Below are positions 9,588 through 64,000 of a DNA stretch of 64,000 bases, in pieces. The DNA comes from Antedon mediterranea (lineage: Eukaryota > Echinodermata > Crinoidea > Comatulida > Antedonidae): assembly GCF_964355755.1 (NCBI RefSeq), contig NC_092674.1:28942001-29006000 (forward strand). Direction: 5' to 3'. A program made the translations under genes and the position numbers. Every line of letters starts with the position of its first letter. The first letter of the stretch is position 1. The notes beneath the pieces were generated by a model, which saw only the letters and a program-made list of their open reading frames with translations, did no database searches and was not told the origin of the DNA.

Positions 9588-12500
9588 ATGTCTAGTAAAG
9601 TTAAGGGTAAAGGTATGTAAAATCACATTCCCTCTCTTCCTTTGCCACATTCCTCAACTTACAGATGAGATCGAGTCAATGAAATAATAATTATTATAAT
9701 AATGGTAGTCACTCTTATATATCGCTTAAATGTCTTCAACTTGATTGTCTTGCTTTCAATATAATGCAATATTTCTAAACGCTTTACACTCGCACACACA
9801 CACAAATATCCTAATAAGCAATGATAATTTGTTAGGCCTAATGTTCATAATTGTAATATGATTGTATGATAATTATTTTAGTACCACTTTTTTTCTTAGA
9901 CAACTATAGATTTGGCCAGAGAGAGCCTCCGTTGGTTGACTATGTGAAACAAATACTTCGAAATTACACAGGTGGTCAGTTGTTGAAGGTAAATAAAATC
10001 ATCGTTATTTATACAGTATCTTATTTAATTGGCTCAATACAAAATATTTTATATAGAGTTTGTATAATTAGCGCAGCATACAGGAAGTAATTGTCATATT
10101 CCAAAAGTGTCCACGAACGTACACCACTTACACTGATCAGATAGGAATGTACAAATATAGGCATTCGAATATTTGTTAATGTCTAATTATATAGAGTGTA
10201 GGCCAGCTCATTCTATTATTATTAATTTATAATAAATAATGTTAAATCCAAAGGCAAAATACTGAAAAAATGACAATGCTGTGGGTATCAGTGGCTGGAT
10301 CAATGGAGATACAAAAACAAGCGAAAAGCTAAATCAAAACGATAAAGTAAAACAGCCAGAAAGTTAGCAGAGCTTTCAACCAACACTAATATAATTTTAA
10401 TATACATTTCTATATAAAGGAGTTGACACAGAATGCAGATGATGCCGGTGCTGCGACGATCAAGTTGTTATACGATGGACGACAACACGGTACAGATAAT
10501 CTGTATTGCGATGAAGGAGCCGGTGATCTGTCACCTTATCAAGGACCAGCTTTGTGTGCATTCAATGATGCTACATTTCAAGAAAGTGACTGGAATAGCA
10601 TACAGAATTTGTCGAGATCTGGAAAGAAGGATGATCCAACGAAAGTTGGTCGTTTTGGAATGGGATTTGTGTCCGTATATCATTTGACAGGTAAGCTTAC
10701 ACAGCAGAGTCATAAAATTGCCATTACAATCCTATGCTATAATGCATATTTCTGTCTATATTATTATTATTATATGGTAGATTGAAATAGTTTGCACTTA
10801 CCGTATTTGTATGTACATTTTTCTGTTACTCAGTTCATCTAATTCTAGAAATCATGGTTATTACTTTGCACCTTACATACACTACCTGTAATATATTTTT
10901 TTTAAACCTTATTTTTCAATGCCTAATCATGTGTCATGTAAGCTCAGACGCAGCAAAAGAGAACTAACGATAACTAAACCTATGCTTTCTGTGTTTTTAT
11001 AATGTTGTACTGTGGACATGAAAACAATTCTCAAAAGTCGTTTAGATATGTAATCCATGAGTTTTAGAAATGGGATTTTTTTTAAATTTGTTTCACTTAC
11101 TGCTTTCTCTACACATCAGTATTTTTAATATTATTCAACTTTTGTCTTTTTTCTATGTTTGTTTAATAATTAATTTCAGATATTCCAAGTATTGTCAGTG
11201 GAGATCATTTTGCATTTATGGATCCTAGTGAGACATTGTTTATGCATGAAGGTAGAGTAGAGCGGGGCCGGCAATTTCACAAGAGCAATCCTGTTTTTAA
11301 AAACAGTAAATCCTCAGACACATTTGCACCTTATAAACATCTGTTCAACGATCATCCAGGTCTAGTAGAAGGAGAGTCTTTCTCAGGAGCAATGTTTCGC
11401 TTTCCTCTTCGAAATCGACGATCAACGATTTCAGAAGAGACAATAGATGGTGAAGAAGTAAGGAAACTTTTTAAATTATTTGTTGATGATGCAAAAATAC
11501 TACTTCTATTTCTGAAGAACATAAGTAGTATATCTGTTGGAGAGAGATTCACTGAAATGGAAAAACCGTTATTTTCTGCACGAATATCAGCTGCAACTAA
11601 TGACTTAGTTAAGGAAAAGAGGAAAGAAATACTATCATCCATAAGAGGTTGGAAACAGCAAAAACACAAACAACAATTCTTAACATTTCCGATGAATATT
11701 CAAGTAGAATTACTTGAGAATGAGAATGTTACAGCTACAGAATATAAATGGCATGTGAGTGTTTATTTGGGTAAACTAGATCGAAAATCAAAAATGTTGA
11801 CATTAGCAAAAGAACTTGATCGACTTCCACTTGCTGGCGTCGCCATGCAAGTTTCCACAAGCAACGTGGTGCAGGCAATTGAGGGCAGAACATTCTGCTT
11901 TCTTCCACTCCCAGCAGAGGAGAACTACAGTGGGTTACCAGTACATGTCAATGCAGATTTTGTTGTTAGTGATGACCGTCGCTCAATCAAATGGCCCCTT
12001 AAAGATCGTAATGATACTATGTCTAGATGGAATCACCTACTACTACAGGAAGTTGTTCCAAAAGCTTACATGAAACTCATTCAAGAAGCCATTGAGCTGC
12101 AAAAAAAAGGAAAATGTTCAGTTAAATGTGTTTATCAGACTTGGCCTGATATGGAGAAGGTGACTTCCCCTTGGAAAGAAGTAATGTGCCGTGAACTTTT
12201 CAAGATGTTACTGGAGGAAAAAGTTTTCTTTACTGAGGCTTGTAATGGTAGTTGGATAAATATTGACACTGCAATATTCGATCTTCAAGAAGACATTCCA
12301 GAAGTAACACAACACCTTATTTTGCAGCTTCTTTGGGAGCAGAAGAAACCGGTTGTCTCCATTAAAAACTATCCAAATGTCATGAAGGCACTTGAGAATT
12401 CCAGAAAACGCCATATCACTCCTAAACTTGTTCGTGACACTCTACGTGGGGTTTCTTTAGGCAACCTTACCAGTCAAGAAAAGATCAATCTTTTAGAGTA

Positions 12501-15500
12501 CTTACTAGCTGATGATGATTTCAATGATCTGCAAGGATTTGAGTTGCTGCCTCTCGCCAATGGATCGTTTTGTGAGTTCGCATCTGGAGAAACTAATGTG
12601 ATTTTCTCTGTATCAAGTGAATGCTCAATGGATCTATTACCAGGTTTAAGTCACAGATTCATTCAAGAGGACCTTAAAGTTTCATTGAAAAAGAAAATTA
12701 AAGATGGAAGCAATAGAACAGGTAAGTTAACACTGTCTTCTACATTTTAGAATTTGTATTTTCCTCGCATTTACAACTAAAATGTGTGTAATCTTCGACA
12801 AAAGAATTAAAATAGGTTGCGAAAAGTGCGACAGGGTTGTCTACTCCCGCAATCTAAGCTACCCTAAATGTGTCTGTGTAACAAATACAAATTTAGAAGT
12901 AATGTAAAGTTATTATTATGATCCAGCAGAGTACCAAATTGATGGCACTGATGTTAGATTATTTCCTTCCAGTTCTGGGGTCAATACCAGAATGTGCAAT
13001 ATGAAATATTCTTTGCACTTAATATAATCACTGTATTTCCGCATAAAAATTAAATATATATTAATTTATTACTGAAAATCATATAACTGAATAAACTGAT
13101 CTTGTGCCTGAAAATTGAGGGTCCTCTTTGGTGATTGTACACATTGTAATATGCATTGGACCAAAGGAAAACTGTTAGTCTATATAACCGTGGGTATTTT
13201 TATCGGACTTACAGAAGATTTAACTTTACTAACTCTAACAAATACCCCAGTGCAGGTACTTTTCTGATAGCCCGCACCACACCATACCAAAGTAGTTTAA
13301 AACCTTCTCAGTACAAATTCCGGTCATTGTTGTTGATAACCCATCACTTACAACCTGCAACCCCTTCGTGGCAGTTTTTAAATGTGAATTCATCTCCAGT
13401 ACAATTTCAGTCATTTATCACACTCCATTACTCCCCTAAACACCAACCCATTTCCCGGTGTAATACATGCGGATAATGTTCAAATTTCATTTCCCAGTAC
13501 AATTACGATCATTTTGATACCGTATGCTAATGTATGTTCGCAGTAGAACAAATTTGGGTGACTCGCCCTTTCTCTTTTTCTCATAATTTATAGATTGCAT
13601 ATATGTGCATACATTTAAATAAATAAACTTGAGTCAGTCAAATTTGTTGAGACTCTATATGATTCATGATATGTATATATTCTTCATGAAACAGTATGCG
13701 TGCAATACATTGTTGATATGTAAACTTGAGTTGCATGCAGATTATATTAACATCAATATATTCTCTATTTCCAGGTATAAAACAGGTTCGAGAGCTGAAA
13801 CCAAACATGATTCCAACTTTAATCAAAGAAGCATTGCCACATGATTGGTTAACCAACCCATGTGTTATTTGGCATCCTGGCCATTATGGCCATCCTCCAT
13901 TCAGCTGGCTTGAAATATTTTGGAATTTCCTTCAACGATCTGGTAAAAGCATCTGTTCATATGAAGGTATTACACTTATCCCTACGAACCTCAATCATGA
14001 TCCTAAAAATATTGAGTTAGCTCGATTTCAAGAGAAATCTCGCCTTGTTGTAATCAGTAGTAAGTATGTGGATCCAAACTTGGTAGAAATATTGACAAAA
14101 CTGCATTTGATTCTAGTTAATATGGAAGGTGCAGATTTTGTTATAGTTCCTCCATCAAAATGGCAACTGTACTTCCATGATGTATCATCACCAGGAGACA
14201 TCTTGCGCATTTTTATTGATGATGGAACCAGCCAAAAATTTAAAGAGGATGTTGATAAACTTTCTGCAGATCATGTCAAATTGTTGAGATCATTTCTAAA
14301 AGATATTCCAACTGGAATTATGTGTGAAGAGTTAAGGATACTTTTGCTCAATATTGCTGTCTTTGAAAGAGCAACACATGTTTTCAGAAGCCCTGCTAAT
14401 AGGTTCCAGATTGCTGTTGCCGATAGAAAGTTACTTAGGACAGTGAACAAAGAAGGACTTCCACCATTTGGCTTTCCAACCAACGATATAGTTCTTGACA
14501 TATCTGATGAAGACTCGAGTATTTTAGCTTCTAAATTAAGCCTTCAGTCATGTCCAAGAGAAGTCATATTGTGCCAAATGATTCAGTGTACCGAGATAGA
14601 CGACGAGATGGATCTAAAGTCACTTATCATCTGGATAATGGAAAGGTGGCATGAACTAAATGCCAACAAGAAGGTTATCAGCGAAATTAAAAAGAAAGCA
14701 TTCATTCCAATGCAAGATGGGAGTCATAAGAAGGCATCAGATTGTTTTGATCCATCAGATGAACTTTTAACCAAGCTTTTTGGAGTTTTAGATGTATTTC
14801 CCACAGCACCATTTGATCGTAACTATAGGGAAATCCTTCTAAAGCTTGGATTAAAAACATGCCACAAAGTGACAAGTAGTGACATTATAAGGTGTGTAAA
14901 TCACTTAAATGAACATCCTAACGAAGAGAGAGCATATGCTCTATGCAATCTTTTAGAAGTAATTCCCCATGTTATCAATGATGGCAGACTTTACAGTTGC
15001 CTACAAAGTCACCAATGGGTTCCTATTGTAAAGTCATTGCCACAAAATACATATCTAAAGGATTTCCCTCTGTTTAAGTCAACTCATATTCTAGTGTCGC
15101 CAAATGATGTGAAGTCTGTGAAACATGCATCTTTAGTAGGTTCGAAATTGCATCTTGTCTTGGATCAGTTTACTGAATTATCTAAAAGATTCCGATGGGA
15201 GTCAATGCCTTCACCACGTGTGGTTTACAAACATTTGCAAAATGTAGTAAACTATGTAACAGAAGAGAAACAAATGGGAAGAAATATAGACACACATAGC
15301 ATTGAAAGTATACTAATAGATATATACCCAGTTTTGCAAAGTGCTATAGTTGAGTTAACACCATTGATAGAGAAAGAAGACAAGTGGGTATGGACTGGAC
15401 AAAATTTTGTTGCACCAACACAAATTTCAATCCAGAAAACCAGACATGTTTTAGAGCCTTACATATTTGTTCTTCCTCTAGGATTTCATCTATACAAGCC

Positions 15501-18500
15501 ATTGTTTAGTGAATTTGGAGCAAGTTTAAAATTTGATGATGAAACAAACCCAATGCTTAGACTATTTGAGGAAATAAAGGATTTTCATGAGGCTAGACAG
15601 GATGTGACGCATGAGCGCATTAAACACGATAGAGATCTAGCAATACAAGTCATTGAATCTATTATAGACTTGAACCTTGAACATGACAAGTTGCCGAATG
15701 AAGTTAGGAATCAAATTTTTCTTCCAATAGCGACGCCAAATGAAAATGTTCTTAAATTTGCCTCATGTAATGATGTATGCTACCCTAATGAGGAATGGCT
15801 AGAAGATGAAGAATTTGAAGATATTAAGCTTGTGCATGAAAGTGTCCCTCGTGGGATATACCAACGTCTAGGTGTGACACCACTTGGTCAAAAGATTAGT
15901 GGTGCAATGTCATTAGCAGGATTTCAACAAGCTGGTCAAAAGGAGGATCTTACTCAAAAGTTAAGGAACATTCTTGACAGTGGCTATACTGAAGACTCTA
16001 TCGCAAAAGAGATGATTCAAAATGCTGATGATGCAGGTGCCACTGAAGTTAAATTCATGATTGACATGCGCACAAATAGTGAATTAAAATCAAAGCTATT
16101 AGATAAAGGCATGAAAGTATGGAATGGCCCTGCGTTATGGGTTTACAATGATGCAACATTTAGTGATGCAGATTTTGTGAACATTACCAAACTTGGTGGG
16201 AGAACCAAACAAGACAATCAAGTTCAGATTGGCACATTTGGTGTAGGATTCAATTCTGTTTATCACATAACAGATGTTCCTAGCTTCTTGTCCCGTGGTA
16301 TTATTGGGTTTCTTGACCCACACACAACGTTTCTGGACAGCCAATTGAGGGATAAGAGCAATCCTGGCATTAGAATTGATCTCAATCAAAGCAAAATGAC
16401 TTTGCAAAGATTCAAAGATCAATTTCTACCATATCAGGGGATTTTTGGATGTGACATTCTTTCCAAAAATAAAGTAAACTTTAATGGAACATTGTTTCGT
16501 TTGCCATTAAGACAACACAGCATGGGCGTTAAAAGTGAAATAAGTAATAAATACTTTAAAGAAGACAATGTTGTTCAGTTAATGAAAAATGTTACTGAAA
16601 TGTCTGAGAAACTACTTCTTTTCACGCAGCATGTAACACGGGTATCTGTTTGTTATCTAGGACCTCATCAAAAGCCACAGCATGCTGTAAAACTGTTCTC
16701 TGTCCGAAAATTTCCAAAACAATACCTGCAAGAAATAAATGGGTTACTGAAATATCAGCCAGAAGAAAGCAAGTTTGAAATGCAGAATACCATCTTACGT
16801 GAGGCTGAGCAGTATATTTCACAAAAGAACGGCACTGGTGATTATCCATGTGCATTAACAGAAGTATGTGTGGAACATTGTCTCACACGTGAAGGAGCTG
16901 TGCGACTTCATAGTACTTGTGCTGAATTTGCAAAAGATTGGCTAGTTTTTACTTGTATGGGCCAAACAAATTCTCTAGATTTATACAAAAAGCAACAGAG
17001 CTTAGAGCTTAAGATTTATGCGCCAAGGTTTAAGATTCCATGTGGAGGAGTAGCACTTCCAGTTCAATCCATTCTTGAAGAAGGTGAAGTATTCTGCTTC
17101 CTTCCTCTGTCAATCCCAACCTCTGGTATACCTTGCCATATAAATGGTAATTTTGCTGTATCTAATGACAGGCATAGTCTTGTGAAACGAAATACACAAT
17201 GTGATGACGATAATAAAAAAAAATCTACTTGGAATAAAGTTATTATGAAAGATGTAATCACCAGAAGCTATGTCGGTTTACTAAAACATGAAGGAGCCAA
17301 GAAATGCTTTAAAACTACTTCATTGTATGACCTTTGGCCTGATGAAAAACAAATTCCTCGGCAAAGTGAATACTACCCCCTCTTAAATGCATTCTATCGA
17401 GCAATTGCATATGGAATTGATGATTCTGGAGATAAGCCATATGTATTTTATAGCGATGGTAAGTGGTTAAATTTTGAATCAATTGCCATTTACAAGCCAA
17501 CTGTTCCACACAGCTCTATCACTGATGATGTGAAGGCAGTTCTTCAGATGTTCATCCCCTCTGAAAAGTATGTAGTAGACCTACCAGAAAAGATTATCAA
17601 TGGATTTAAAAGAGCTGGGTGTAGTGACTTAATTGATCAATACACAGAAGAAAGGTTTTTTGAAGAAATATTTTTCCGCAACATCACAAAAATTCAAAAT
17701 CAAACTCAACGTAATAAATTGATCATGCATGTTATTGACAATTCTAAGAAGACCCCGCTGTTCAAAAAGCTCTTACAGAACACAGCTTGCATTCCAACTG
17801 GCAGTTGTTTGGAAAAGATATCTAGAGTCATACATCCACATGGTAAAGTGGCTGATCTTTTTAAAAATGAAGAAAATCGTTTTCCAATTAAGTCTTTTCA
17901 GACAGACAATACACGAATGGAAGTTATGGTTGAGCTTGGAATGATAAAAGATGATCTGGACTTGCCAGAACTTCTAGAAAGAGGACGTGCTTTTGGAGAT
18001 AGTAAGCAAAAGAAAGAACATAAGATAAGGAAGATTCAATCATTCATGAGGTTGTTGGAAAGAAAACGAAAGATGATCGATCGTGGATTTCTTAATAAAC
18101 TTTCCACTTTACAACTTTTACCAATATTGAAAAGACCAAAAGATTTTCCTACTAACTTTCCATGGTTCGGAGATAAATGTCGTAATTTTGTTTGTGCTAA
18201 AAATATCTGCCTTTCTGAACATACAGATTTAGTATGCTTTCTAAAACCTATCGTTGATGAAGATGTTTTTCAAAGTTGTGAAGATGCAGGACGTGTTCTT
18301 CGGATGTTTAATCTATCAAGTAAAACATCTACACCAGGTTGCAATGAAATTATCCAACAACTTAAAAAACTATCTGAGATTGAAAATGACTTACTTATTA
18401 GTAGTGAATCAACTGTTGTACGGCTTTGCAACAGCATCTATTCACATCTTGAAATAGGACTTCAATGGGACGCAGATATTCATGAATTACGTAATGCTGA

Positions 18501-21500
18501 TTGGCCATGGATGTGGTGTGGGGATCGATTTGTCAACACAAATTCTGTTTGTGTAAATGAAGGCAATGTTAATCTCAGTCCATACTTCTTCTCAGTTCAC
18601 AAAAGTTTACGGAATCATAAGAAATTGTTTAAGCATTGTGGAGTAGCAATGGATCAAAGTGAACGATTAAGTGATCTAATACAAATTCTTCATAAGATCA
18701 AAGAAAAACACCAACGAGTTGTTACTCCTCTTGAAACTAACATTGACCACAAGCTTGTTATTGACATTTTACTTTTTATCAAAAGTCATACAAAAGAACC
18801 TTTTGCAGAGGATGATCAACAAATTCTTATTCCCATTCAGAGTCAAAATCTCAAACTAGTCTCACCAGATGAGTGTTGCTTCTGTGATGATTGGTCGAAG
18901 CAAGGTTTAGACATTGACCATGATGAAAATGTTGTACATCAAGATATATCAAATGGAACAGCTTCATTTTTTGGAGTCATACCTTTGAGTAAAAAGTTAT
19001 CTTACAGTAAAGAGATTGGAATAACACAATATGGTCAAGGCGAAAAATTAACCCAAAGGTTGCATAACATACTACAAGACTATCAAGCAACAGATATTCC
19101 AAAAGAAATGATCCAGAATGCCGATGATGCAGAAGCTAAAGAGGTAAACTTTCTAATAGATCTTAGCAGAAATTCAAACACAAAAGGTTTATTAGATGAA
19201 GGAATGGCTCTATGTCACGGCCCAGCGCTTATTGTGTATAATGATGCAGAGTTTACAAAAGAAGATTTTGAAAGCATAATAAAGTTGGGTGGACAATCTA
19301 AGAAAGAACAAACAAGCAAAATTGGAAAGTTTGGTCTGGGTTTCAATTCTGTTTACCACATCACAGATGTCCCAAGTTTCATCAGTAATGGCCGACTAAC
19401 GATTTTTGATCTTCAGAGATTTCATCTTGGCAATCAAATTCAGTCTGGAGCTCCGGGAATTCAGATCGATTTCAGAAAAAACCCAAGCACTTTGACAAGG
19501 TTTAGTAACCAGTTTCAGCCATACGAAAACTTGTTTGAATTGAATTTTTCACGTTTTTCATGTTTCACTGGAACTCTTTTTCGACTTCCACTTCGAACTC
19601 AGGATCAAGTGCAAAAAGGTGGAGAGATAAGCAAAGCAGTTTTTGAAGAAAGCCAAATAACAGAACTCATTACCATGTTTTGTGAGCAAGCTGGTAATAT
19701 GCTATTATTCACCAAGCATGTGAAAGCAATCAAAGTCTACCATAGAAGATCCTATGATGAACAACCAGAATGCATTTGTAGCGTTGCAAGAGAAAGTACC
19801 AGAAAAGACATGGAAATCGCTTACAAGATTAGAATTACTGTAGACTTAAAGGGTCAAAGTACGAAAGAAGACTGGATCATTCAACCTGCTATAGGAACTA
19901 GTGATGCGCTACAATTAGCTAACAGTCCATTTGGTATAAAGCATGGGTTAAACTCACATGGTGGACTGGCATATAAATGTAACAGTAAAGAAAATTTCAC
20001 TGGATTAGTGTTTTGTTTTCTTCCACTCTCTATTCCATCTAGTGGACTTCCCATACATATCAATGCAAAGTTTTCTGTAGCTCCAGATCGAAGAAGTCTT
20101 CGCAAGAGGGGATCAGGAGATGATGCATCAATACATTCAGAGTCACAATGGAATGATGCTTTAATGAAAGATGTAATCTCAAGAGGATATGTTGTGATGC
20201 TTTCAGAGCCTACCTCAAGATCATTTATACTCAATGATGTATCGATTAACAATAAAGAAGACAGTATGTTTTCACTCTGGCCAAGAACTGATCATGTACA
20301 TACAGATATTAATCATGTTGTGCATTGTTTCTATCAAGCTGTTGTTCATGGAATGGATGAAAAACTTCCAGAGATATTTAAAGTTAAAGATAACTGGTAT
20401 ACATTTCAGGAACTTTGTTTCCTTGATGAAGAGTTAACAAATTGTCATATTTTACCGACGGTAAAAGAGATACTGGAGAGAAATGGGTGTGTGATTGTAG
20501 ATCTACCTAAGTACATTCGGAAAAGCTTCCTACACTCAAAGTGTTCAGATGCTCTAGCAGAAAATACAATTTCATACCAAGAGTTTTTTGAAGAACAGTT
20601 CTTTCCACATTTAGCAGAGTTACCAGATTCTTTGGTCAATAAAGTTGTACTGTTCCTGCTCAAACACAATGCCGGGTATGATTGGATAGATAGCAACTTG
20701 AAATGTCTTCCTTGTATTCCCTCTACACCTAATGGGATTCGGAAACGTCCATCTGAACTAATTGATGAATCTTGTCCTAACATTGCTTCAATGTACCTTC
20801 CAGAAGATGGAAGATTTCCATTTGGCAAAGAATTCAAAGATCAACAAATATCTAGAAAGTTACATTCACTAGGTATGTCACATTCGGTTGTACCATTTGA
20901 GTACATTGTCGAACGATGCCAATCAATTGAGATATTACATCAATCAGACTCAACTGATGCAGTTACACTATGCCAGAAAAGAGCTAATGCTGTCATTAAA
21001 TACGTAGATTTAATTCAAATTGATGAACATCAAGTACAAATAATTAAAAGTATCAAGTTCATTCCAATTGAGACTCAAGCTCCAGCTGATTATCCTATTG
21101 GTTGGGCAAATTCAGTGGATTTATTTCTGTCACCAGATTGTGTTTACACATCAGATTTAGTAGATTATGTTGGAGCTGTTGCCCCTGTATCGAAGTCTCT
21201 ACCATGTTCTTATTCGACCAGGAAACTACTAAAAATGAAAGTCGTGCCTAGCTTGGTGGACATGCTTAAACAGCTGAAATATTTAGTTGTTACTGACATG
21301 ACTGACAGTACTAAAGTTGCAAAAGTTCAAAGAATGTACAAGTGCTTAATGAAGAAAATTCAGAAATTAAATTCCAATAAAGAAACAACCATCCGTGAGT
21401 CATTGCAGGATTCAGCCATTGTCTTGTGTTATGGAAAGTTTATGAGAATTAAACATGTCGCACCAGAATGCAAAAAGGATTTCCAGCCATATCTTTACAA

Positions 21501-27500: not shown

Positions 27501-27972
27501 TTTCAATTTTGGTTCATCAACTGGATTTACATCCCGAGGTGGAGCTCGACCCTCGACGCCTGAACCTGCAAAAGCGAAGTTATTGCAGAGAGAAGCTCAT
27601 CACGACTTCAATGCAGCTAGTAACGATGTTGATGGCAGTCGTCCAAGTTACAAATGGGCTGCTTATAAGTGTTTGCAAGCAGTTGAAAAATCATTAAAAG
27701 CAGCTATATTATCAAAGACTGGTGGAAATGTAAGGCATGATATTAGACATTTGTTAATCACAGTTGAAGATATACCTAACTGCCCACATGACCTCCGTAA
27801 ACACGTCAATGAACTGTGTACCTATAGTAAGGATCAGAATTTTGCCAGTTATCAGAACGGTAATGAAGCACTGCATAACCTATATAGCAGAGAGGATGCC
27901 GAAGTTTGCATTTCAAATGCACAAGTAATTTTAGACATGATGGACACACTTAGCGATTTAAATAATGATTGA
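9588..27972 (+). CDS. SACS-like: Sacsin-like giant co-chaperone, copy A (5374 aa, 5 coding exons)
   Basis: Coding exons are 9588-9612, 9900-9988, 10420-10690, 11180-12721 and 13775-27972, and the phases close to 5374 codons. The start MSSKVKGKDNYRFGQREPP is preceded in frame by TAA (9564-9566) in the same exon, so no upstream ubiquitin-like domain can be encoded through that exon. Four sacsin repeat regions begin with a GHKL/Hsp90-like fold. Their E-x3-N-[AS]-D-D boxes are at about residues 39-46, 1391, 2424 and 3385, each followed by G-x-[FY]-G-x-G-F-x-S-V-Y-H and ending near a D/S-R-R/H-S block. A J domain (about 5124-5178) and a HEPN domain (about 5250-5368) close the protein. Human sacsin has three repeat regions in 4579 residues. 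Sacsin couples Hsp70-type chaperoning to organelle and cytoskeletal quality control; the role of this paralogue is unknown. The ATG at 13726 is intronic. Confidence 0.93.
13285..13545 (+). repeat. Interspersed repeat in intron 4 of copy A
   Basis: AAAACCTTCTCAGTACAA and a later CAGTACAATTACGATCATTTTGATACC match the repeated blocks at 55179-56075. The family was not recognised. It is probably a fragment of the same interspersed element. Confidence 0.5.
27205..27955 (+). other. Copy A C-terminus: J domain, Gly/Ser/Phe linker, HEPN domain
   Basis: The J domain spans about 27205-27385, with WHPDKNPGHEEF and the catalytic HPD at about residues 5150-5152. HPD is the motif that stimulates Hsp70 ATPase. 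A basic and FGSSTGF-containing linker follows. HEPN (about 27595-27955) begins HHDFNAASNDVDGSRPSYKW, followed by AYKCLQAVEKSLKAAI, RHDIRHLLITVEDIPNCP and a final helix with ISNAQVILDMMD. In human sacsin this domain dimerises and binds nucleotides. Confidence 0.9.
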
Positions 27973-28195
27973 TTCACCTAGCATAATATTATGTTTAAGT
28001 TACGAACATTAATGGGAAGTTTCAAATCAATTAAACTATTAACATGATTATTAATGGTTGAATCATTGAACTGCCATCTTTGCAAAACAATTCACAACTA
28101 TAAATCTACACCAGGCTTAATCTTGTTTTAACAAAAATTAGAAATTACAGTCCAAATAAACAAATTGAATTATTTTTATTAAAGTTACAGTGTAA

Positions 28196-28300
28196 AGCTC
28201 TTTCAGCACTATCAAACTAGTTAGACAAAAAATGTGATGTGCCCAAATATGGTAGTAATATGATCGTATCGCCTATTATGGACATCACAGGAACAATCGG
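28196..28300 (+). mobile_element. MITE copy 3, truncated
   Basis: ACTATCAAACTAGTTAGACAAAA, GTGATGTGCCCAAATATGG and TAGTAATATGA follow the order of the intact family members. The right terminus is missing. Confidence 0.65.
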
Positions 28301-28552
28301 AAGGAACAAGCACCAACAAAAAATGCACTAAAAAATGCAAATTTTGCTATACAGTAAATGACATTATGCTTATTAATGTGTAGGTACCATAATGTATTTT
28401 CTATATAATTATTATGTACTGGTAATTCTTCAAATTACTACAAAATGTTAATAAATGTATGAATAATAATTATAATAATGTATAACAACATTTTTTAAGG
28501 CAGATTAATATTATTATTGAAAGAATGGTTTCATAGTTCTTGTGTCACTATA

Positions 28553-28579
<27 letters not shown>

Positions 28580-28588
<9 letters not shown>

Positions 28589-32270: not shown

Positions 32271-32615
32271 CTCCCTCGTGTGCTAACAAAAATTGCTGTC
32301 AGACCATGGCTTACGGTATGGTACAAAGTGGGTTTTCACTGATCTCGCTTCTAGGAATTCCCTTAAAATCACATATTTAAGCATACGGCGTATGGCTGGT
32401 TTCTGTCAAGGGGAAGGTATGAAAATAGTAAATGTGAAACTACCAATTTTCCATTTAATTCAACAACACAACGCCATCTTCTATTTGTGAAATGGAGTAA
32501 ATGTGAATGCAGCTTTAGTTACGTAATCACTATGAATAACTATGAATGTTTTTAATCACAATTATAATTATTTACCTTAGGATCTGGAATTGAATAGCAA
32601 CAAATATTATTCATG

Positions 32616-41600: not shown

Positions 41601-44600
41601 AATACACCATGATGGAGCTAAGAAGTGCTTTAAAGCTACCTCATTGTATGACCGTTGGCCAGATGAATCGAAAATTCCTGAGCAAAGTGAATATTTTCCT
41701 CTTCTAAAAGCATTCTACACAGCCATTGCATATGGAATAGATGATTCTGGAGATAAACCATGTGTATTTTATGGTGATGATAAATGGTTAAATCTTGAGT
41801 CAATCGCCATTTACAAAGCTACTGTTCCAAATAGCCCTATCACTGATGATGTGAAGGCAGTTCTTCAGATGTTCATTCCGTCTGAAAAGCATATGGTAGA
41901 CATCCCAGAAAAGATTCTAAATGGATTTAAAAGAGTTGAATGTAAGGACTTGATTGATCAATACACGGAAGAACGTTTTTTCAAAGAAATATTTTTCCCC
42001 AACATCACCAAAATCCAAAATAAGACTCGGCGGAATAAATTGATCATGCATGTTATTGACAATTCTAAGAATTGCCCATTGTACCAAAGGCTTTTAAGGA
42101 ACACAAATTGTATTCCAACTAACAGTCGTTTGGAAAAGATATCTAGTGTCGTACATCCACATGGTAAAGTAGCTGATCTTTTTGAACCTGAAGAAAATCG
42201 TTTTCCAATCAAGGATTTTCAGACAGACAGGGCACGAATGGAAGTGATGGTTGAGTTGGGAATGATAAAGGACGATTTGGATATGACAGACATTTTAGAA
42301 AGGGGCCGTGTTTTTGAAGACAGCAAGCGTTCAAAACAAATCAGGATAAAGAAGATACAAACATTCATGAGGCTTTTGGAAAGAAAACGAGGGATGTTCA
42401 ATGATGTGGATCTTGATAAACTTTCCAGTTTACAAATATTCCCAGTATTGCCAAGACCAATGGACTTTCCTAAAGTCTTTCCTTGGTTTGGAAATGAATG
42501 TGGGGATTTTGTGTGTGCTAAAAAGCTTTTCCCCTCAGTACACACAGATTTAGTATGCTTTGTAAGACCTATCATAGATAAAGTTGTTTTTCAAAATTGT
42601 GGAAATTCAGTTTTACAAATGTTTAATCTATCGAATCAAACATGTACACCACATTGCAATGATGTCATTCAACAACTAAAAGAACTATCCAGGATTGAGA
42701 ATAAGTTCCTTGTAAGTAATGAATCAACTGTTCTCCGGCTTTGCAGCAACATCTATTCACATCTTGAAAGAGGTAGTAATGAAGAAATTCGTGAGTTGCT
42801 TAACACTGATTGGCCATGGATATGGAGTGGGGAACAATTTGCCAATACGACTTCTGTTTGTATTAATGAAGGCAAGGTTAATCTCAGTCCATACTTCTTC
42901 TCAGTTCATAGAAACTTACGGAAGTATAAGCAACTATTCGAACATTGTGCAGTAGCAATGGAACAAAGTGAAAGATTAAGTGATCTTATACAAATTCTTC
43001 ATAAGATCAAAGATAACCATGAACAAAGTGTTGAAACTAAGGATGACCACAAGCTTGTTATTGATGTTTTACATTTTATCAAAAGTCATACAACTAAAGA
43101 AGATTTTGCAAAGAATTATCAGAACATTCTTATTCCCATTCAGAGTCAAAATCTCAAATTAGTCTCACCAGATGAGTGCTGCTTTTGTGATGATTGGTCA
43201 AAGCAAGGTTTAGACATTGAACATGATGAAAATGTAGTACATCAAGATATACCAAATGCAATAGCTTCTTTTTTTGGAGTTATACCTTTGAGTAGAAAAT
43301 TATCTCATAGTAATCAGATAGGGATAACACAGTATGGTCAAAATGAACCATTAACACAGAGGTTGCACAATATACTGCAAGACTATCAAGCAACAGATAT
43401 TCCGAAGGAAATGATCCAGAATGCAGATGATGCAGAGGCTAAAGAGGTAAAATTCTTAATAGACCTTAGCGAAAATTCAAACAAAAAAGGTTTATTAGAT
43501 GAAGGAATGACTCTATGTCACGGCCCAGCGCTTATTGTGTATAATGATGCAGAGTTTACACAAGATGATTTTGAAAACATAACAAAGTTGGGTGGACAAT
43601 CTAAGAAAGAACAAACAAACAAAATTGGAAAGTTTGGTCTGGGTTTCAATTCGGTTTACCACATCACTGATGTCCCGAGTTTCATCAGTAATGGTCGTTT
43701 AACGATTTTTGACCCCCAAAGATTTCATCTTGGTAATCAAATACAGTCAGGAGCTCCTGGAATTCAAATAAATTTCAAAAAGAACCCACAAACTGTGGAA
43801 AGGTTTAGCAATCAGTTTCAGCCCTACTCAAACTTGTTTGGATGGAATTTTCAAGATTCGTATTTCACAGGGACCCTTTTTCGACTTCCACTTCGAACTT
43901 ATAAACAAGTACAGAAAGGAGGAAAAATAAGCAGAGAAGTTTTTGATGATAAAAAAATAAGAAAACTCATATCTACGTTTTGTGAGCAAGCTGGTGATAT
44001 GCTGTTATTTACTAAGAACGTTGAAAAAATCAAAGTCTACCACAGAAGATCCTATGATGAACAACCAGAGTGCATTTGTAGCGTTGCAAGAGAAGGTACT
44101 AGAAAAGACATGGAAACAGCTTACAAGATTAGAATTACTGTAGACTTAAAGGGTCAAAGTACGAAAGAAGACTGGATCATTCAACCTGCTATAGGAACTA
44201 GTGATGCGCTACAATTAGCTAACAGTCCATTTGGTATAAAGCATGGGTTAAACTCACATGGTGGACTGGCATATAAATGTAACAGTAAAGAAAATTTCAC
44301 TGGATTAGTGTTTTGTTTTCTTCCACTTTCTATTCCATCTAGTGGGCTTCCCATACATATCAATGCAAAGTTTTCCGTAGCTCCAGATCGAAGAAGTCTT
44401 CGCAAAAGAGGATCAGGAGATGATGCATCAATACATTCAGAGTCACAATGGAACAATGCTTTAATGAAAGATTTAATCTCAAGAGGATATGTGGTGATGC
44501 TCTCAGAGCCTACTTCAAGATCATTTATACTCAATGATGTATCGATTAACAATAAAGAAAACAGTATGTTTTCACTCTGGCCAAGAACTGATCATGTACA

Positions 44601-47600
44601 TACAGATATCATCCATGTTGTGCATTGTTTCTATCAAGCTGTTGTTCATGGAATGGATGCAAAACCTCCAGAGATATTTAAAGTTAAAGATAACTGGTAT
44701 ACATTTCAGGAAATTTGTTTCCTTGATGAAGAGTTGACAAATTGTCATATTTTACCGACGGTAAAAGAGATACTGGAGAGAAATGGGTGTGTGATTGTAG
44801 ATCTACCTAAGTACATTCGGAAAAGCTTCCTACACTCAAAGTGTTCAGATGCTCTAGCAGAAAATACAATTTCATACCAAGAGTTTTTTGAAGAACAGTT
44901 CTTTCCACATTTAGCAGAGTTACCAGATTCTTTGGTCAATAAAGTTGTACTGTTCCTGCTCAAACACAATGACGGGTATGATTGGATAGATAGCAACTTG
45001 AAATGTCTTCCTTGTATTCCCTCTACACCTAATGGGATTCGGAAACGTCCATCTGAACTAATTGATGAATCTTGTCCTAACATTGCTTCAATGTACCTTC
45101 CAGAAGATGGAAGATTTCCATTTGGCACAGAATTCAAAGACCAACAAATATCTAGAAAGCTATGTTCTCTAGGTATGTCACATTCGGTTGTACCATTTGA
45201 GTATATTGTCGAACGATGCAAATCAATTGAGACTCTAAACCAATCTGGGTCAACTGAGGCTGTTACAATATGTCAGAAAAGGGCTTCTGCTGTACTTAAA
45301 TATATGGATTCTATTAGTAAAGAAATTGAAGAACATGAAGTTCAAAGAATTGTAAATATCAAATTCATTCCAGTTGAGATCCAAGCCCCACCTGATTATC
45401 CTGTTAGATGGGCAAATTCATCTGATTTATTTCTGACACCAGAGTGTGTTTACATATCAGAATTAGTAGACTGTGTTGGAGCTGTTGCCCCAATTTCAAA
45501 ATGTCTACCATGTTCTAAGAATACCAGGGAAATACTGAAAATGAAAGTCGTTCCTAGCTTGATGGACATTCTTAAACAGCTGAAATATTTAGTTGTTGCT
45601 GACATGACTGACAGTATTAAAGTTGCAAATGTTCAAAGAATGTACAAGTGCTTAATGAAGGAAATTCAGATATCAAATTCCAATGAAGAAACAACCATCC
45701 GTGAGTCATTGCAGGATTCAGCGATTGTCTTGTGTTATGGAAAGTTTATGAGAATTAAACATGTCGCACTAAGGTGCAAACGAGAATTCCCGCCTTATCT
45801 TTACAAACTACCATTTGAACTCAGAAGTTATAACAATATTTTTCAATTGCTAGGCATGGAAGAAGATTTTTCTTATTCTACCTTATTGGATATAAGTTAT
45901 AATCTTCAAGCGAAGTATACAGAACAGGCTCTTGAAGGAAGAGACTTACGAGTGGCAATTGAAATGGTTCAAAGTATTGCTGATTGTAAATCTTGTGAGG
46001 ACCCACGTCCAATTTTAGTTCCCGATCGACAAGGATATTTAAGGCAAGTCGACCAACTAAGCTTTTGCCTTCATGATACTTCAGATGCTGATATAGGAGA
46101 AGAAATCTTGTGCCATGATTTAATCCCCCAAATATTAGCAGCTTGTATAGGTATAAAAGATATAAGATCAAGTGTACTTTTGAAGCATGGATCAAAACTT
46201 AAATATGGTAAAATGTTTGGTCAGGTACAGAAATTGACTAACCGAATTGGAGAGATTCTGAAGGGTTATCCTTGTGACGATTCAATATTCAAAGAGTTGC
46301 TACAGAATTCTGATGATGCTGGGGCAGATGAAATTAATTTTATATACGACCCACGTCAACATTCAGATACAAAAGTATTCTGTGATAACTGGAAAGAAAC
46401 TCTTGGACCAGCATTATGTGTTTACAACAATAAACCATTTACAGAAGATGACTTAAAGGGAATCCAGGATCTTGGAACTGGCGCCAAATCATTTCATCCA
46501 GATAAGACAGGCCAATATGGAATAGGGTTCAATTCTGTGTACCATCTTACAGATTGCCCTTCATTTTTAACCGATGATGACACACTTTGTATTTTTGATC
46601 CACATTGTGCATTTATTGACCATGCAACTCAAGAATCACCAGGATACCAGTATGATATTTCACCAAAGGTTAATGAAATGTTTCGAGATTCTTTGGCTTG
46701 CTTTCGTTTGGACTCTCTCAAAAACAAAGGGTCTACATTATTTAGATTTCCCTTGCGTACTTCAAGAATGAAGAATTTTGCATCAATAAATCAAGTACCA
46801 ATGAGCCAAGAGCTATTTGATGGTGACAAAATACAAAGCCTACTTGACAATTTCGAATCGAATGCATTTCAAATGTTGTTATATTTGAATAATCTAACAA
46901 AGATTACAATTTCACATATTGAAAAAGACAGCCATATGAAAACAGATTACTGGGTAAAGGCAGAATTATCACCGGAAGATAAAAAAAGGCGACATGACTT
47001 CTACAACTACGTTAAAGAATGTGCCAAGACATCAAAATTGGAAGACATTCAAATGACAGAGGTTACATATGAAATGACAATTTCTGATAAGTATGGTAAA
47101 AGACAAGTATGGTTAATCAATCAACGGATAGGCTCGACTGAAGAGATTCCTGCATCCATATCATGTGCTTATGATGAAGGAAGTTTGAAACTATTACCAC
47201 GTGGTGGAGTAGCAGCATGTATATCTCATAAATCGTCATCAACAGGTACCTATTGCTTCCTACCACTTCCAATACAAGTAAAACTACCTGTGAGTATAAA
47301 TGGACATTTCAGTCTTGATCCAAGTAGGCGTGATTTATCAAATATAATGCAAAATAAAGAGTGGAATGAATATGTTAAATGTCAAGTAATTGCCCATTCC
47401 TATTCTCAACTGCTCAACAAATTAAGAGATGGATGCTTTGCCTCTGACAATGGCAGTGCATCACAAATCACCTGCTCTTCTGGGGAGATGGCTAAGAAGA
47501 TGGAATTCTATTGGCAATACTTTCCAGATATACAAAATGTACACACAGATTGGAAGCAATTGGCTACACAAGTATTTAAAGATATTCTTCAAAATCAGAT

Positions 47601-50600
47601 GTTAATGTTTCCAGTTGTTCGAAAAACAGATGGATTGATCTGCAGTAAGCAAGAAACTGACAACATAGGTGTTGCTTATTTATTGAAATGGCTTCCTGCA
47701 ATTGGAACAAATGATAAAAAGGTATACTTTTGTCCAGTCAACAAACCTGTGTTTGCATTAAAAAAGTTGCTGTTTGGTGAGGAGGAAGATATTCTACCTC
47801 TAGCTATTCTGCAGCATATATGCTTTAATATTACAACTGTACCAGGTACTGTCTACAATGGTCTGATCGAAGTAGGATCACAGGCTGCCAAACACCAAGT
47901 AAATCCAGTTGAGGAAGTTTCACCAAAAGCTGTTGTTTACTTCCTGAAAAGTGCCTTCAACCCGGGTGAACTACCTTGTGACATCATTAGTTCAAGTCTC
48001 CAAAGTGAACACAATTACATAAAACTGCTTAAGTATATTGATAAAGATAGAGAATTGCAAGAAGGGAACATTTCTCTAAATGGCATGGCATTGCTGCTCA
48101 CACAAGACATGCAGTTAAGAAGATTTAATGAAACAGATACATATTTTATATCCAGAAGATATACTTTGCTTCCAAAATCCTTGGATGAATTTGTTTATGA
48201 AAAGGCTCAATGTCATTTCTCTTTCAAATCTTGTGAAATAAAGAAATTCTGCATTGAAGATCTTGTAGAACGGCTACCTGCCAATTTGGGGCCGACATAT
48301 GAAAATTCAAAACTTCTATGGAATCCAGACGGTAAGGAATTTCCAAATAAATGTTGGATTCAAGATCTCTGGAAGTTTCTTAAAACAAAATTTGAAGATA
48401 AGAAATACTGTCCTAATCTTAATGATAATGACAAATGCGATCATATCAAACATCGTATGGGTAATTGGTCTGTGCTTCCAGTTAAAGTACCTACCAAAAG
48501 AAAAAGTTTATTGACAAGAATGTCGGTAGTGAATCACTATTTAATGCCATTTTCTGCAGCAGAATCTGTACTCCATTGTCATATATTAGACAGCACTATC
48601 AAAGAAGCATGTTCAAAGTTAAGTCTTCCTGTTGTAGATAATGATATATTTCAGAGAAGAGATTTATATAATTATCTCTCTTATAGTATCTCTGATGACA
48701 GCGTCAACTTCATTAAACGTTTTATTGCCACTGAGGGTACCCCTACAAGAATACTGACAACTTTCATATCCTTGTTGGATGAAGATAACCAAGCCTTTGA
48801 TTCACTGAACTCGTACAACAGAAAAGAAATTTTGTTGTATTTTGAACGGTTTGTTGGATTTTCCGTAAAAGAAGAACATATCTACAGTTTAAAACGGCTA
48901 CCATGCTACCGTTCCATTCACAACGAATTCATTAATTTGAGTCAAAACAAACATCATTTTGTTCTTCATTCTGGCATTCCAAAGGTCGAGAAAGAAAAGT
49001 GGGTAGATGAAGCAAACGCAGAGTTCATTGAAGATGATGACTCATTAAAAAAACTTTATGGACTTCTTGGATTGACAAAATGTAGTGAACCAGACGTCTA
49101 CAAAGAATTTATTCTACCATTGTTCTACAAGTTCACTGATGAAGCAAGAGTTGAACACATGACGCGTATTAAACAGATTGTGGATGAATCGATTTATCAA
49201 AGACCAGTTGATAAATATTCAAGGATCAGGATGATAGGAACCATGGATTTGAAGAACACACCTTTAGTATCCCACAAAGACCGACCGTTAAAATACATAC
49301 GTGAATATTTTGACGATTCAATTACAATTTTCAAACTTATGTTACAACCTGAAATGTTGTTACCAGAGCCATTCTGTACTTATGATTGGAAACAATTTAT
49401 GACAGAGCTAGGTTTGCAAACAAAAGCTACACCTCAAATGGTTTTAGAATTTGGACGTAAAATTGAACAAAGGTTGAATAGATTTAAATTCAAGGAAGAG
49501 TCGGAGAAGTCTAAAGCACTTGTTAATTACATTGCAACGACAGAAGAACTGAAGACAGATAAAGGATTCTTGAGTCAAATGAGTGGCATAGCATTTTTAG
49601 TGCCACCTTACTTAGATCCCAACCTGTTAACCCTTCATAAACGATATAATGAACCTGGTAAAGTTGGTGTTGCATACAATGGGGCTTTAACAAGTCAGAA
49701 TGTAAAACTCGCATGGACAAGCGCAAGTATTTTACCAAACTATGCCATTCCTTATGTGCCACATCGTATAGGATGTATTTCATTTAGAGATATGTTTTCA
49801 GACTTAAATATATCTGAAACACCATCAATTGATACTGTTCTTCAGCATACCAAGAACATATGTACACATCTGGAAAAAGAATATGACTACTTTAAAAGAA
49901 CAGGAAGCGTAGCTACGTCTCCTGAATGCAAAGAAGCATTACATGAAGTTATGCAAAAAATCTATGGGTATTTTTCTGAAAAATTCAGAAAAAGTAGCGA
50001 AGATTGTACATGCATTGTGAGGCAATTAATTGATGTGCCCATCCTGTTAGTTGATCATGATGAGATACTTACTCCAGTTAAGTACACAGTGAAACAAATA
50101 AAGAAAGACCTAGTACTTACACCATACATTCATAAAATACAAGAAAGCTTTGTTCAATATATGGACTTCTTTAAACATCTTGGTGCTGAGGACAAACCTT
50201 CCATTTGGCAATGTTGTGAACTTCTCAAAATGGTTCATGAAGAAGTTAAAGATAAATCATTTCATGATAATCCAAATTTAATGTCCATGATCAAATTTGC
50301 AGTTCGCAAAATCTTCAAATCTCACAAAGATAAAGGGTGGCTGCAAGGTATTGACGTGTTGTATCTTCCTAATCGATCTTATCAACTTATGGATTCAAGT
50401 ACTTTGAAGTACTACGACAAACCGATGTTTGAGGTTAGAATGAAAAAGGAAAATGACAAGAATATTCTTTTTAATTTCACCGAAATTAGATTGAAAGATA
50501 GTCCTATTATCTATATTGAAAACATGCCAACAGATCTACAGCCTGGTAAATTCAGCACACAAGTGAAAGAGTGTATGACTTCAGATCCTGTAGAAAGCGA

Positions 50601-52293
50601 ATGTCGTTATGCAAAGGAGGGACTTTGTACGCAACAAAATATTATTCAACATCAACTCCAATCTTCGTTGTTCCATAGAGGTGTTTACCGTCTTTTGAAA
50701 CATGAAGCTAATCAACAGGGATTGGAACTTACAGATGCAGATTATTCACAAAAACTGTTAACATTATCTCCAGATCATCTTACCATCAAATGTCTCAACA
50801 ACCTAAAAACCCATTTTCAGAAATTTGGAGACATAATTGAAGGAAGTACATTTGAACCACATTGCTTCCTTGAAAGAAGAGAAGATAAAGCAACAATATT
50901 TATAAGGCATGACGATTCAGATGATTCAGATAACTTTCAAATTCTAAAACTAATGTTGGTAGAAAAAGTAGGTGAACTTACTGGAGTGTTGAGCAACATG
51001 GAAGTGGCGCTGATGATTTGTAGTGATCCAAATAATATACAGAAAGTGTTAAGTACTCGTAATATTCAGGCTTTAGATGAAAACAAATTTAAAAAAATGT
51101 CATTGCCAGAATTGGGATCCCGTGTACCAGATGATGTTGTAGAATCTTTGAATAACCATCCATTCAATGACTTTAGACCTGGAGAGTATGTTGTATATGA
51201 GCGAGAAGACCAAGATGAAGTTTATGTTTATGCGAAAGTATTACGAAAGATATCATGCAATACTTCAGAGAGCAGTTCTCTCAACAGGATGTACGAAATA
51301 GACTATGGGAAAGTGAAAATAGTCAGCACGTTGAGTTTATACAAGTGGCTGTCACATAATTCTAATGAAACAAGTCAGGATGTAGGCATGGATTTACAGC
51401 GATATGTAGCCTCTGAAAATAACCCATTGGGTAGTGAAGAAACTTCAGTACCACAAACCTATGACAATCTCGACGACACTAAATCCACAGTGTCGGACGA
51501 ACTAGAAGAGATTTGGAAACTTGAAGTTCAAGAAAGGAAAAAAGCAATCAAACGCTTGTACTTAAAATGGCACCCAGATAAAAATCCCGACCATGAAGAA
51601 TTTTGCAATGAGGTATTTAAGCATCTGAAAAATGAAGTTGATCGTTTAGAAAAGGGTCGTCCCAGAAACTCAATGAATTATTACACATCTGATTTTGGAA
51701 CATGGGATGAACCATTTAGAGGATGGGACGAAAGAGCCCGAAGGTATAGAAGTAATAGATATCATTTCAATTCTGGTTCCTCACCAAGATATAATTTTGG
51801 TTCGTCATCCGGATACAATTTTGGATCATCATCTGGATTTAGTGGTTATCGCAACTTTACATCTTATACCTCAACACCTAGTCAACGTGATGCAAAGTTA
51901 TCACAAAGTCAAGCACGCCATGACTTCTTTGCAGCCGGCAATGATGTTGATGGCAGCCATCCAAGTTATGAATGGGTTGCTTATAAGTGTTTACAAGCAG
52001 CCGAGAAGTCACTAAAAGCTGCTATATTATCAAGTACAGGAGGAAACTACATGACACATGATATTAGACATTTGTTAATCACAGTTGAAGGTATACCAAA
52101 CTGCCCAAATGGTCTACGTAAACATGTCAGTGAGCTGTGTACTCATGGTAAGGATCAGAATACCGCACGTTATTATTGGGGTAATACAATTCCACATAAC
52201 AGATATAGTAGTGAAGATGCCAACATCTGTATTTCAAATGCAGGAGCAATTTTAGACATGATGGACACACTGATTGAAGGATCACCGATTTAA
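32616..52293 (+). CDS. SACS-like: Sacsin-like giant co-chaperone, copy B (5361 aa, 5 coding exons)
   Basis: Coding exons are 32616-32640 (an in-frame ATG at 32613 would add one Met), 33548-33636, 35014-35284, 35748-37283 and 38129-52293. Exons 1, 2 and 3 have exactly the same lengths as in copy A, and all phases match. An in-frame TAG at 32595-32597 precedes the start MSDEDEGEDNFTFGQREPP, again excluding an upstream ubiquitin-like domain through this exon. The four E-x3-N-[AS]-D-D boxes are at about residues 39-46, 1382, 2404 and 3366. The J domain HPD is at about 5122 and HEPN at about 5232-5355. Copy B lacks the linker expansion of copy A near 23530-23660 but has an FGSSSGY-repeat linker before HEPN. 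The tandem position, equal structure and same strand show a segmental duplication. Function beyond sacsin-type chaperoning cannot be read from the sequence. Confidence 0.93.
33684..34705. mobile_element. Non-autonomous piggyBac-like element in copy B intron 2
   Basis: The left end is CACTTTGACTGCCA and the right end is its reverse complement TGGCAGTCAAAGTG. The left flank is TTAA (33680-33683) and the right flank TTAC (34706-34709), one change from the TTAA duplication typical of piggyBac. The 1022-bp interior has no transposase frame and includes a second TTGGCAGTCAAGCG subterminal copy near 34660. Confidence 0.65.
34781..34959 (+). mobile_element. MITE copy 5, near intact, copy B intron 2
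   Basis: TAAGCTCTGTCTACACTATC at the left mirrors GATAGTGTAGACAGAGCTTT at the right. Internal AAATATGGTAGTG repeats and a TCATGTCCATATATGG arm match copies 4 and 6. Confidence 0.85.
37367..37866. mobile_element. Tigger/pogo-like non-autonomous element in copy B intron 4
   Basis: The left terminus CAGTAGAACCTGTGTTTTACG is mirrored on the right by CGTAAAATGAAGGTTCTACTG. CAGTAGAACC is a typical pogo/Tigger end, and a TA precedes the left end. Internal TGATTTTACG repeats lie near both ends. No coding frame was seen in the 500 bp. Confidence 0.65.
51485..52285 (+). other. Copy B C-terminus: J domain, repeat linker, HEPN domain
   Basis: The J domain (about 51485-51665) has WHPDKNPDHEEF with HPD intact. 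The linker at 51770-51850 contains repeated FGSS units (NFGSSSGY twice). HEPN begins ARHDFFAAGNDVDGSHPSYEW and continues with AYKCLQAAEKSLKAAI and HDIRHLLITVEGIPNCP. The protein ends ILDMMDTLIEGSPI. Confidence 0.9.

Positions 52294-57190: not shown

Positions 57191-64000
<6,810 letters not shown>

What the first reader, a model, noticed from the sequence alone, without database searches (positions are those of the whole stretch)
9588..52293. Tandem pair of sacsin-like genes with four repeat regions and no ubiquitin-like domain
Each gene encodes four GHKL-type sacsin repeat regions, a J domain and HEPN. Human sacsin has three repeat regions after a ubiquitin-like domain. In both genes an in-frame stop lies 20-25 bases upstream of the start codon in the same exon, so the missing domain is not an annotation gap. 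A giant chaperone that has lost the proteasome-binding end and gained an ATPase-like region, kept as a local duplicate, may have a different client range.
Basis: partly seen in the sequence, partly recalled or inferred. Interest (0 to 1): 0.75.

Follow-up and report, generated by a model that had tools for sequence, protein, structure and literature searches.

The report
Paired four-repeat sacsin genes
Two neighbouring animal genes encode giant sacsin-type chaperones with four ATPase-like units instead of three, and three-unit copies elsewhere in the same genome look like shortened versions of this older four-unit form, so the number of units in this family is less fixed than its human member suggests.

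Summary
Two intact five-exon genes in tandem (9588-27972, 5374 aa; 32613-52293, 5362 aa) each encode four sacsin (SACS/SIRPT) units, a J domain with HPD and a HEPN domain. They start on a short exon with an upstream in-frame stop, and no ubiquitin-like match lies near them. The genome holds three more sacsin genes on contig C8, also without a ubiquitin-like match nearby, and these have three units. Their middle unit is a fusion: its head is orthologous to unit 2 and its last ~175 residues to unit 3 of the window genes. Units 2 and 3 split before the two gene clusters separated (heads: AU test against the alternative p=2.8e-5; tails alone undecided). So here four units are most likely older and three derived, by an in-frame loss of about 977 residues. 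"Lost the proteasome-binding end" is not supported: a published survey describes the ubiquitin-like fusion as a vertebrate feature. Both genes are under purifying selection (dN/dS 0.37), with signs of local gene conversion. Whether vertebrate sacsin is primitively three-unit or also reduced remains open. New variant of a known kind; moderate interest.

The parts
9588..27972 (+). Gene 1: four-unit sacsin-like gene, exons 9588-9612, 9900-9988, 10420-10690, 11180-12721, 13775-27972; 5374 aa
   Evidence: open frame across five exons with GT/AG sites and conserved phases; Pfam SACS x4, HEPN
32613..52293 (+). Gene 2: four-unit sacsin-like gene, exons 32613-32640, 33548-33636, 35014-35284, 35748-37283, 38129-52293; 5362 aa
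   Evidence: Pfam SACS x4, HEPN
9588..9612 (+). Gene 1 short first coding exon (MSSKVKGK then phase-1 donor); in-frame stop starts 24 bases upstream
32613..32640 (+). Gene 2 short first coding exon (MMSDEDEGE then phase-1 donor); in-frame stop starts 18 bases upstream
10405..11565 (+). Gene 1 unit R1, Hsp90-like sr1 (split by an intron); equivalent of vertebrate SIRPT1
   Evidence: PDB sacsin match of the second half; tree with the PDB sacsin sequence
15940..16680 (+). Gene 1 unit R2 sr1
19042..19770 (+). Gene 1 unit R3 sr1, the unit absent as a separate unit from the C8 genes
   Evidence: PDB sacsin match E=1.3e-36
21922..22629 (+). Gene 1 unit R4 sr1; last unit, position of vertebrate SIRPT3
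   Evidence: PDB sacsin match E=5e-34
18451..21381 (+). Gene 1 stretch (residues 2202-3178, 977 aa) with almost no counterpart in C8 gene A: tail of R2 plus most of R3
   Evidence: breakpoint scan
42766..45687 (+). Gene 2 equivalent of the stretch missing from C8 gene A
27208..27381 (+). Gene 1 J domain (HPDK at 27295)
   Evidence: 1iur match E=7.3e-18
27577..27942 (+). Gene 1 HEPN domain
   Evidence: PF05168 E=6.5e-14
35005..36112 (+). Gene 2 unit R1 sr1 (split by an intron)
40273..41007 (+). Gene 2 unit R2 sr1
43345..44070 (+). Gene 2 unit R3 sr1
46228..46941 (+). Gene 2 unit R4 sr1
51532..51651 (+). Gene 2 J domain (HPDK at 51571)
   Evidence: below Pfam cut-off
51907..52263 (+). Gene 2 HEPN domain
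   Evidence: PF05168 E=7.8e-11

Best explanation
These are two tandemly duplicated, apparently functional sacsin-family genes of the four-unit, Ubl-less kind. The protein most likely works as a giant cytosolic co-chaperone: four Hsp90-like N/middle modules in a row act on client proteins, the J domain recruits and stimulates Hsp70, and the C-terminal HEPN domain dimerises or binds nucleotide. No proteasome tether is built in. The four-unit form is the older state in this genome. The three-unit sacsin genes on C8 arose from a four-unit ancestor by an in-frame unit-2/unit-3 fusion that removed about 977 residues; since A, B and C share it, it most simply happened once, before the C8 copy was multiplied. 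Shown by sequence: gene structure, four units, no Ubl match, the fusion in C8, purifying selection; its polarity is supported by the head trees. Inferred from family knowledge: chaperone activity, Hsp70 recruitment, HEPN function.
For: Four SACS units per gene. The units keep the Bergerat-type E..N..DDA and GxGF motifs and, in genes 1 and 2, an arginine motif at the expected place; one search's pattern did not find the arginine motif in R4 of C8 gene A. R1 (second half), R2, R3 and R4 match solved sacsin chains. Whole genome: 22 SACS matches (23 candidates) = 5 genes, 2 of four units on C5 and 3 of three units on C8. C8 gene A is collinear with gene 1 apart from residues 2202-3178. In 100-residue windows starting at unit positions 0-750 its middle unit matches R2 at 50-92% and R3 at 22-64%; the window at 800 is mixed (R2 36-40%, R3 46-47%); windows at 850 and 900 match R3 at 65-72% and R2 at 25-37%. 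B and the pieces of C behave alike. The breakpoint at unit residue 846 separates 280 R2-only/45 R3-only matches from 10/74 (A against gene 1); 0 of 10,000 shuffles of the 409 informative columns reach the observed statistic. R2 and R3 share 34% in gene 1 against about 61% for C5-C8 orthologous units. Head trees put R2 of C5 and C8 together, apart from R3 (100/98 to 100/100). Holding C5 R2+R3 together costs 31.4 log units, AU p=2.8e-5. dN/dS of genes 1/2 is 0.37, of gene 1/A 0.29.
Against: The tail region alone does not reject duplication after the C5/C8 split (AU p=0.295), because the R2 tail is very divergent. R3 identity between genes 1 and 2 (86.7%) is partly inflated by likely gene conversion. 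No transcript or protein data. No other metazoan genome was available, so polarity outside this genome is unknown. The fold prediction of R3 was poor (mean pLDDT 47.4) and was not used. Exon 1 of C8 genes A and B was picked by eye and none was found for C, whose upstream side has a 2,500-base gap.
Confidence: 0.78

Rival explanations
1. The C5 genes gained a unit: a three-unit ancestor underwent an internal tandem duplication of its middle unit in the C5 lineage after it split from C8, and the inner copy (R2 tail + R3 head) then diverged fast.
For: The three-unit layout matches vertebrate sacsin (PMC3629688, passages). The tail region alone does not exclude it (AU p=0.295).
Against: R3 shows no sign of fast change between genes 1 and 2 (86.7% aa; dN/dS 0.31, the lowest of the five regions), although gene conversion lowers its divergence. 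R2 and R3 stem branches are of similar length (0.75 and 0.63). Heads reject it (AU p=2.8e-5).
Confidence: 0.12
2. One reading: a sacsin derived from a human-like ancestor by loss of the Ubl domain and gain of a fourth ATPase-like unit, with a new client range.
For: No Ubl match is near and four units are present.
Against: PMC3710099 reports the Ubl fusion as a vertebrate feature (passages). None of the five sacsin loci found here has a Ubl match nearby, whatever its unit number. Four units most likely precede three in this genome.
Confidence: 0.07
3. Annotation gap: an unseen upstream exon carries a Ubl or another N-terminal domain and splices into exon 2.
For: Exon 2 begins at a good acceptor, so an alternative first exon is mechanically possible.
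Against: No PF00240 match at E<=1 near either cluster; no Death-domain match there among 149 listed, 150 of 179 candidates scored; a short first exon of the same phase in four of five paralogues, two of these picked by eye.
Confidence: 0.05

Closest known systems
Vertebrate sacsin (SACS; SIRPT1-3, Ubl, XPCB, J, HEPN)
   Same: SACS/SIRPT units with Bergerat ATPase motifs, J domain, HEPN, one giant last exon. The first unit groups with the solved vertebrate sr1 (99/97), whose residues fit those listed for SIRPT1. R4 shares four of five variable ATP-site residues listed for human SIRPT3, by my hand count from PMC9880540 Table 1 on alignment A1.
   Different: Four units instead of three (two middle units, R2 and R3), no N-terminal Ubl found, two genes in tandem, 5362-5374 aa instead of 4579.
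Three-unit sacsin paralogues on C8 of the same genome (genes A, B, C)
   Same: Same exon pattern in gene A, no Ubl match nearby, HPD and HEPN-like end in gene A; 61.5% aa identity of gene A to gene 1 over shared columns.
   Different: The middle unit is an R2-head/R3-tail fusion. B and C carry frame breaks in this assembly.
Invertebrate sacsin-like proteins, some fused to Death domains (PMC3710099, passages)
   Same: Animal sacsins with HEPN for which no Ubl is reported.
   Different: No Death-domain match at these loci.
Bacterial single-SACS proteins (e.g. cyanobacterial loci L008-L027)
   Same: Homologous sr1, 36-40% identity over about 235 residues.
   Different: One SACS motif in 8 of 10 ORFs inspected and none by my pattern in the other 2; ORFs of 1059-1927 aa, some possibly cut by contig ends.

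Membership tests
Sacsin family (SACS units + J + HEPN) | repeated SACS/SIRPT units with an Hsp90-like ATPase site | tested here: met
   PF25794 x4 per gene; PDB sacsin matches; site motifs
Sacsin family (SACS units + J + HEPN) | J domain with HPD near the C-terminus | tested here: met
   1iur E=7.3e-18 for gene 1; HPDK in genes 1, 2 and A; Pfam DnaJ itself below its cut-off
Sacsin family (SACS units + J + HEPN) | C-terminal HEPN domain | tested here: met
   PF05168 52.5 and 42.6 bits against cut-off 22
Vertebrate-type sacsin architecture | N-terminal ubiquitin-like domain | tested here: not met
   no PF00240 match near the loci; short first exon with an upstream in-frame stop
Vertebrate-type sacsin architecture | exactly three SIRPT units | tested here: not met
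   four units in each window gene
Vertebrate-type sacsin architecture | XPCB region | not tested
   no model searched
HEPN ribonuclease | intact Rx4-6H motif | tested here: inconclusive
   by eye: gene 1 lacks the arginine, gene 2 has a longer spacer, C8 gene A has an R-x6-H string; alignment uncertain
Active Hsp70 co-chaperone | chaperone or ATPase activity | not testable with these tools
   -

The most novel reading that the evidence does not exclude
Four units without a Ubl is the ancestral bilaterian (at least deuterostome) sacsin. Vertebrate sacsin reached three units independently, by losing or fusing its middle units, and gained the Ubl, so the human three-unit plan would be a reduction that paralleled the C8 genes. 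The few human residues I could place do not decide it: W1523, R1575 and the E1480-N1526 spacing look R2-like, K1555 and H1587 look R3-like (hand comparison, assuming no length change in between).
Probability: 0.3. Interest if true: 0.6.

Novelty: new variant of a known kind. Interest (0 to 1): 0.42.

Why it matters
Sacsin is the ARSACS ataxia protein and the papers I saw describe it as a three-unit chaperone with a proteasome-binding end. A genome that carries four-unit and three-unit Ubl-less sacsins side by side, with the three-unit form made by an in-frame fusion of two units, suggests that a whole module can be removed without destroying the gene. It offers a natural pair for asking what each module does, and it makes the origin of the human layout directly testable with a handful of invertebrate sequences.

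Tried and rejected

Led nowhere: COX1 search for the organism, 0 matches; paper searches for a feather-star or crinoid genome (0 papers, 6 of 14 listed, none read); viral-contig search, 100 stretches matched a pattern, none confirmed; fold prediction of R3, mean pLDDT 47.4, not used further; the sacsin Ubl/SR1 crystal paper by DOI is not held.

Results against my reading: the tail-only AU test does not reject duplication after the C5/C8 split (p=0.295); the third test in that call was uninformative because the tree is unrooted. Human SIRPT2 residues give no clear answer. The windowed comparison uses local alignments, so weak matches may be somewhat inflated.

Rows left out: gene C enters only as pieces (tails) and is absent from the trees and the first tree; B and C R4 are absent from the second tree; R1 of B and C was not used; 10 of the 80 bacterial loci were used.
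Full report
What is there. The window (C5:28942001-29006000 of an unnamed 354-Mb animal genome) holds two complete sacsin-like genes on the + strand. Each has five coding exons: a very short first exon, three that carry unit R1, and a last exon of about 14.2 kb. Splice sites are GT/AG and phases agree between the genes. The proteins are 5374 and 5362 aa, 78.4% identical over shared columns. Pfam finds SACS four times in each, HEPN once, and a DnaJ match below its cut-off. The J domain is secured by a match of gene 1 to the solved J domain 1iur (E=7.3e-18; named KIAA0730 there, which I recall to be sacsin) and by HPDK in both genes.

The missing ubiquitin-like domain. In-frame stops begin 24 and 18 bases upstream of the ATGs. 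A search of the whole genome with the ubiquitin family gave 72 matches at E<=1, none near either sacsin cluster. Two of the three sacsin genes on C8 show a short, acidic first exon of the same phase (read by eye; positions), so four of five loci share this kind of start. I found none for gene C, and 2,500 bases upstream of it read N. The Ubl is thus most likely truly absent from the window genes, but cDNA is needed to close the case. It is not a loss peculiar to them. PMC3710099 (passages) lists the Ubl fusion as a feature that vertebrates show.

Which unit is extra. The genome has 22 SACS matches: two genes of four units on C5 and three genes (A, B, C) of three units on C8, with the first unit split over two exons in all five (loci). 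Gene A (C8:8916670-8931117, 4347 aa) is open throughout and collinear with gene 1 except that gene 1 residues 2202-3178 have almost no counterpart. The missing stretch is about one unit long but out of register: it runs from late R2 to late R3. The remaining middle unit of gene A is a fusion. In 100-residue windows starting at 0-750 it matches R2 at 50-92% and R3 at 22-64%; the window at 800 is mixed; windows at 850 and 900 match R3 at 65-72% and R2 at 25-37%. Gene B and the pieces of gene C show the same. A breakpoint scan of A against gene 1 puts the switch at unit residue 846: 280 R2-only and 45 R3-only matches on the left, 10 and 74 on the right, and 0 of 10,000 shuffles of the 409 informative columns reach the observed statistic.

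Polarity. R2 and R3 of gene 1 share only 34%, whereas C5 and C8 orthologous units share about 61%. Trees of the heads place all R2 sequences together, those of C8 included, apart from R3, with 100/98 and 100/99 when ten bacterial relatives are added. Forcing C5 R2 and R3 together costs 31.4 log-likelihood units (AU p=2.8e-5). The tail region on its own does not reject it (p=0.295). R3 is the unit most alike between genes 1 and 2 (86.7%, against 75-81% for the others), which speaks against fast change of R3, but part of that likeness is probably gene conversion (below). Taken together, units R2 and R3 most likely split before the C5 and C8 clusters did, and the C8 genes lost about 977 residues by an in-frame fusion shared by A, B and C. 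So in this genome four units are older and three are derived, the reverse of what 'gained an ATPase-like region' implies.

Relation to vertebrate sacsin. The first unit groups with the solved vertebrate sacsin sr1 (98/94, 99/97); the residues of that chain fit those listed for SIRPT1 in PMC9880540 Table 1 (section 6 read). Spacing between the catalytic glutamates in human sacsin (E116, E1480, E2548; same table) is 1364 and 1068 residues. Here it is 1349, 1032 and 961 in gene 1, and 1349 and 1021 in gene A (from positions). So SIRPT1 corresponds to R1, SIRPT3 most likely to R4, and SIRPT2 to the middle. The few human residues available from that table and from the mutation list of PMC3629688 (section 12 part 1) are mixed between R2 and R3, so I cannot say whether vertebrates are primitively three-unit or reduced.

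Function. The window pair is under purifying selection (dN/dS 0.37 between genes 1 and 2, 0.29 between gene 1 and A), so both genes are probably used. All four units keep the ATP-site motifs. By family knowledge (PMC3629688, PMC9880540, PMC8395086: passages) the protein should be a giant co-chaperone whose J domain recruits Hsp70. That, and the roles of HEPN and of the fourth unit, are inference. Without a Ubl, a direct proteasome link is not expected.

Gene conversion. Divergence between genes 1 and 2 is uneven: dS is 0.05 and 0.02 at residues 2801-2900 and 2901-3000 against 0.33 overall. The longest identical run is 235 bases, against at most 96 in 2000 random placements of the differences. 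Recent local gene conversion within unit R3 is likely. The C5-C8 argument rests on the head trees and the fusion, not on the R3 identity.

Novelty. In the listings of my paper searches and in the passages or sections of the five papers I opened (PMC3629688, PMC9880540, PMC6208414, PMC3710099, PMC8395086) I saw no description of four-unit sacsins or of the fusion. This does not cover subscription journals or database annotations, where such gene models may well exist. I rate it a new variant of a known kind.

Noticed in passing
gene 1 residues 2801-3000 (window about 20248-20847) against gene 2: dS falls to 0.02-0.05 against 0.33 overall, with identical runs of 235, 209 and 155 bases nearby: likely recent gene conversion between the tandem copies.
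   Followed up: partly
C8:8897161-8911800 (gene B) and about C8:8868254-8882674 (gene C): Both three-unit paralogues have breaks of the reading frame in this assembly (B one shift in its last fifth, C a shift and an in-frame stop); pseudogenes or assembly errors.
   Followed up: partly
59361-61318 (-): Two overlapping open frames, one with a weak GIY-YIG match (E=0.0047, below cut-off), which look like a Penelope-type retroelement (name recalled) inside an intron of the neighbouring transporter-like gene.
   Followed up: no
57173-64000 (+) and about 981-3300 (-): Flanking genes: exons with PF03619 matches (Ost-alpha; E down to 3.4e-22; TMEM184-like by my reading) downstream, and an ATP-cone match (E=2.8e-7) with a weak ribonucleotide-reductase match (below cut-off) upstream, by my reading the large subunit of ribonucleotide reductase.
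   Followed up: partly
8136-9200: A 43-bp minisatellite of about 25 copies a few hundred bases upstream of gene 1.
   Followed up: no
52268-52576: A 164-bp unit present 1.9 times covers the 3' end of gene 2, its last codons and stop included.
   Followed up: no
L008-L027 and others: Cyanobacterial and other bacterial ORFs of about 1060-1930 aa carry a sacsin-type sr1; the cyanobacterial ones are 36-40% identical to the window units.
   Followed up: partly
G000:C2:7827797-8206132: 12 homeodomain matches in 0.38 Mb, apparently a Hox cluster; the matches all lie on contigs C1-C11. A bilaterian; echinoderm is my guess from repeat style, not tested.
   Followed up: no
G000 C3, C5, C9: 149 listed Death-domain matches (150 of 179 candidates scored), many in local arrays.
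   Followed up: no
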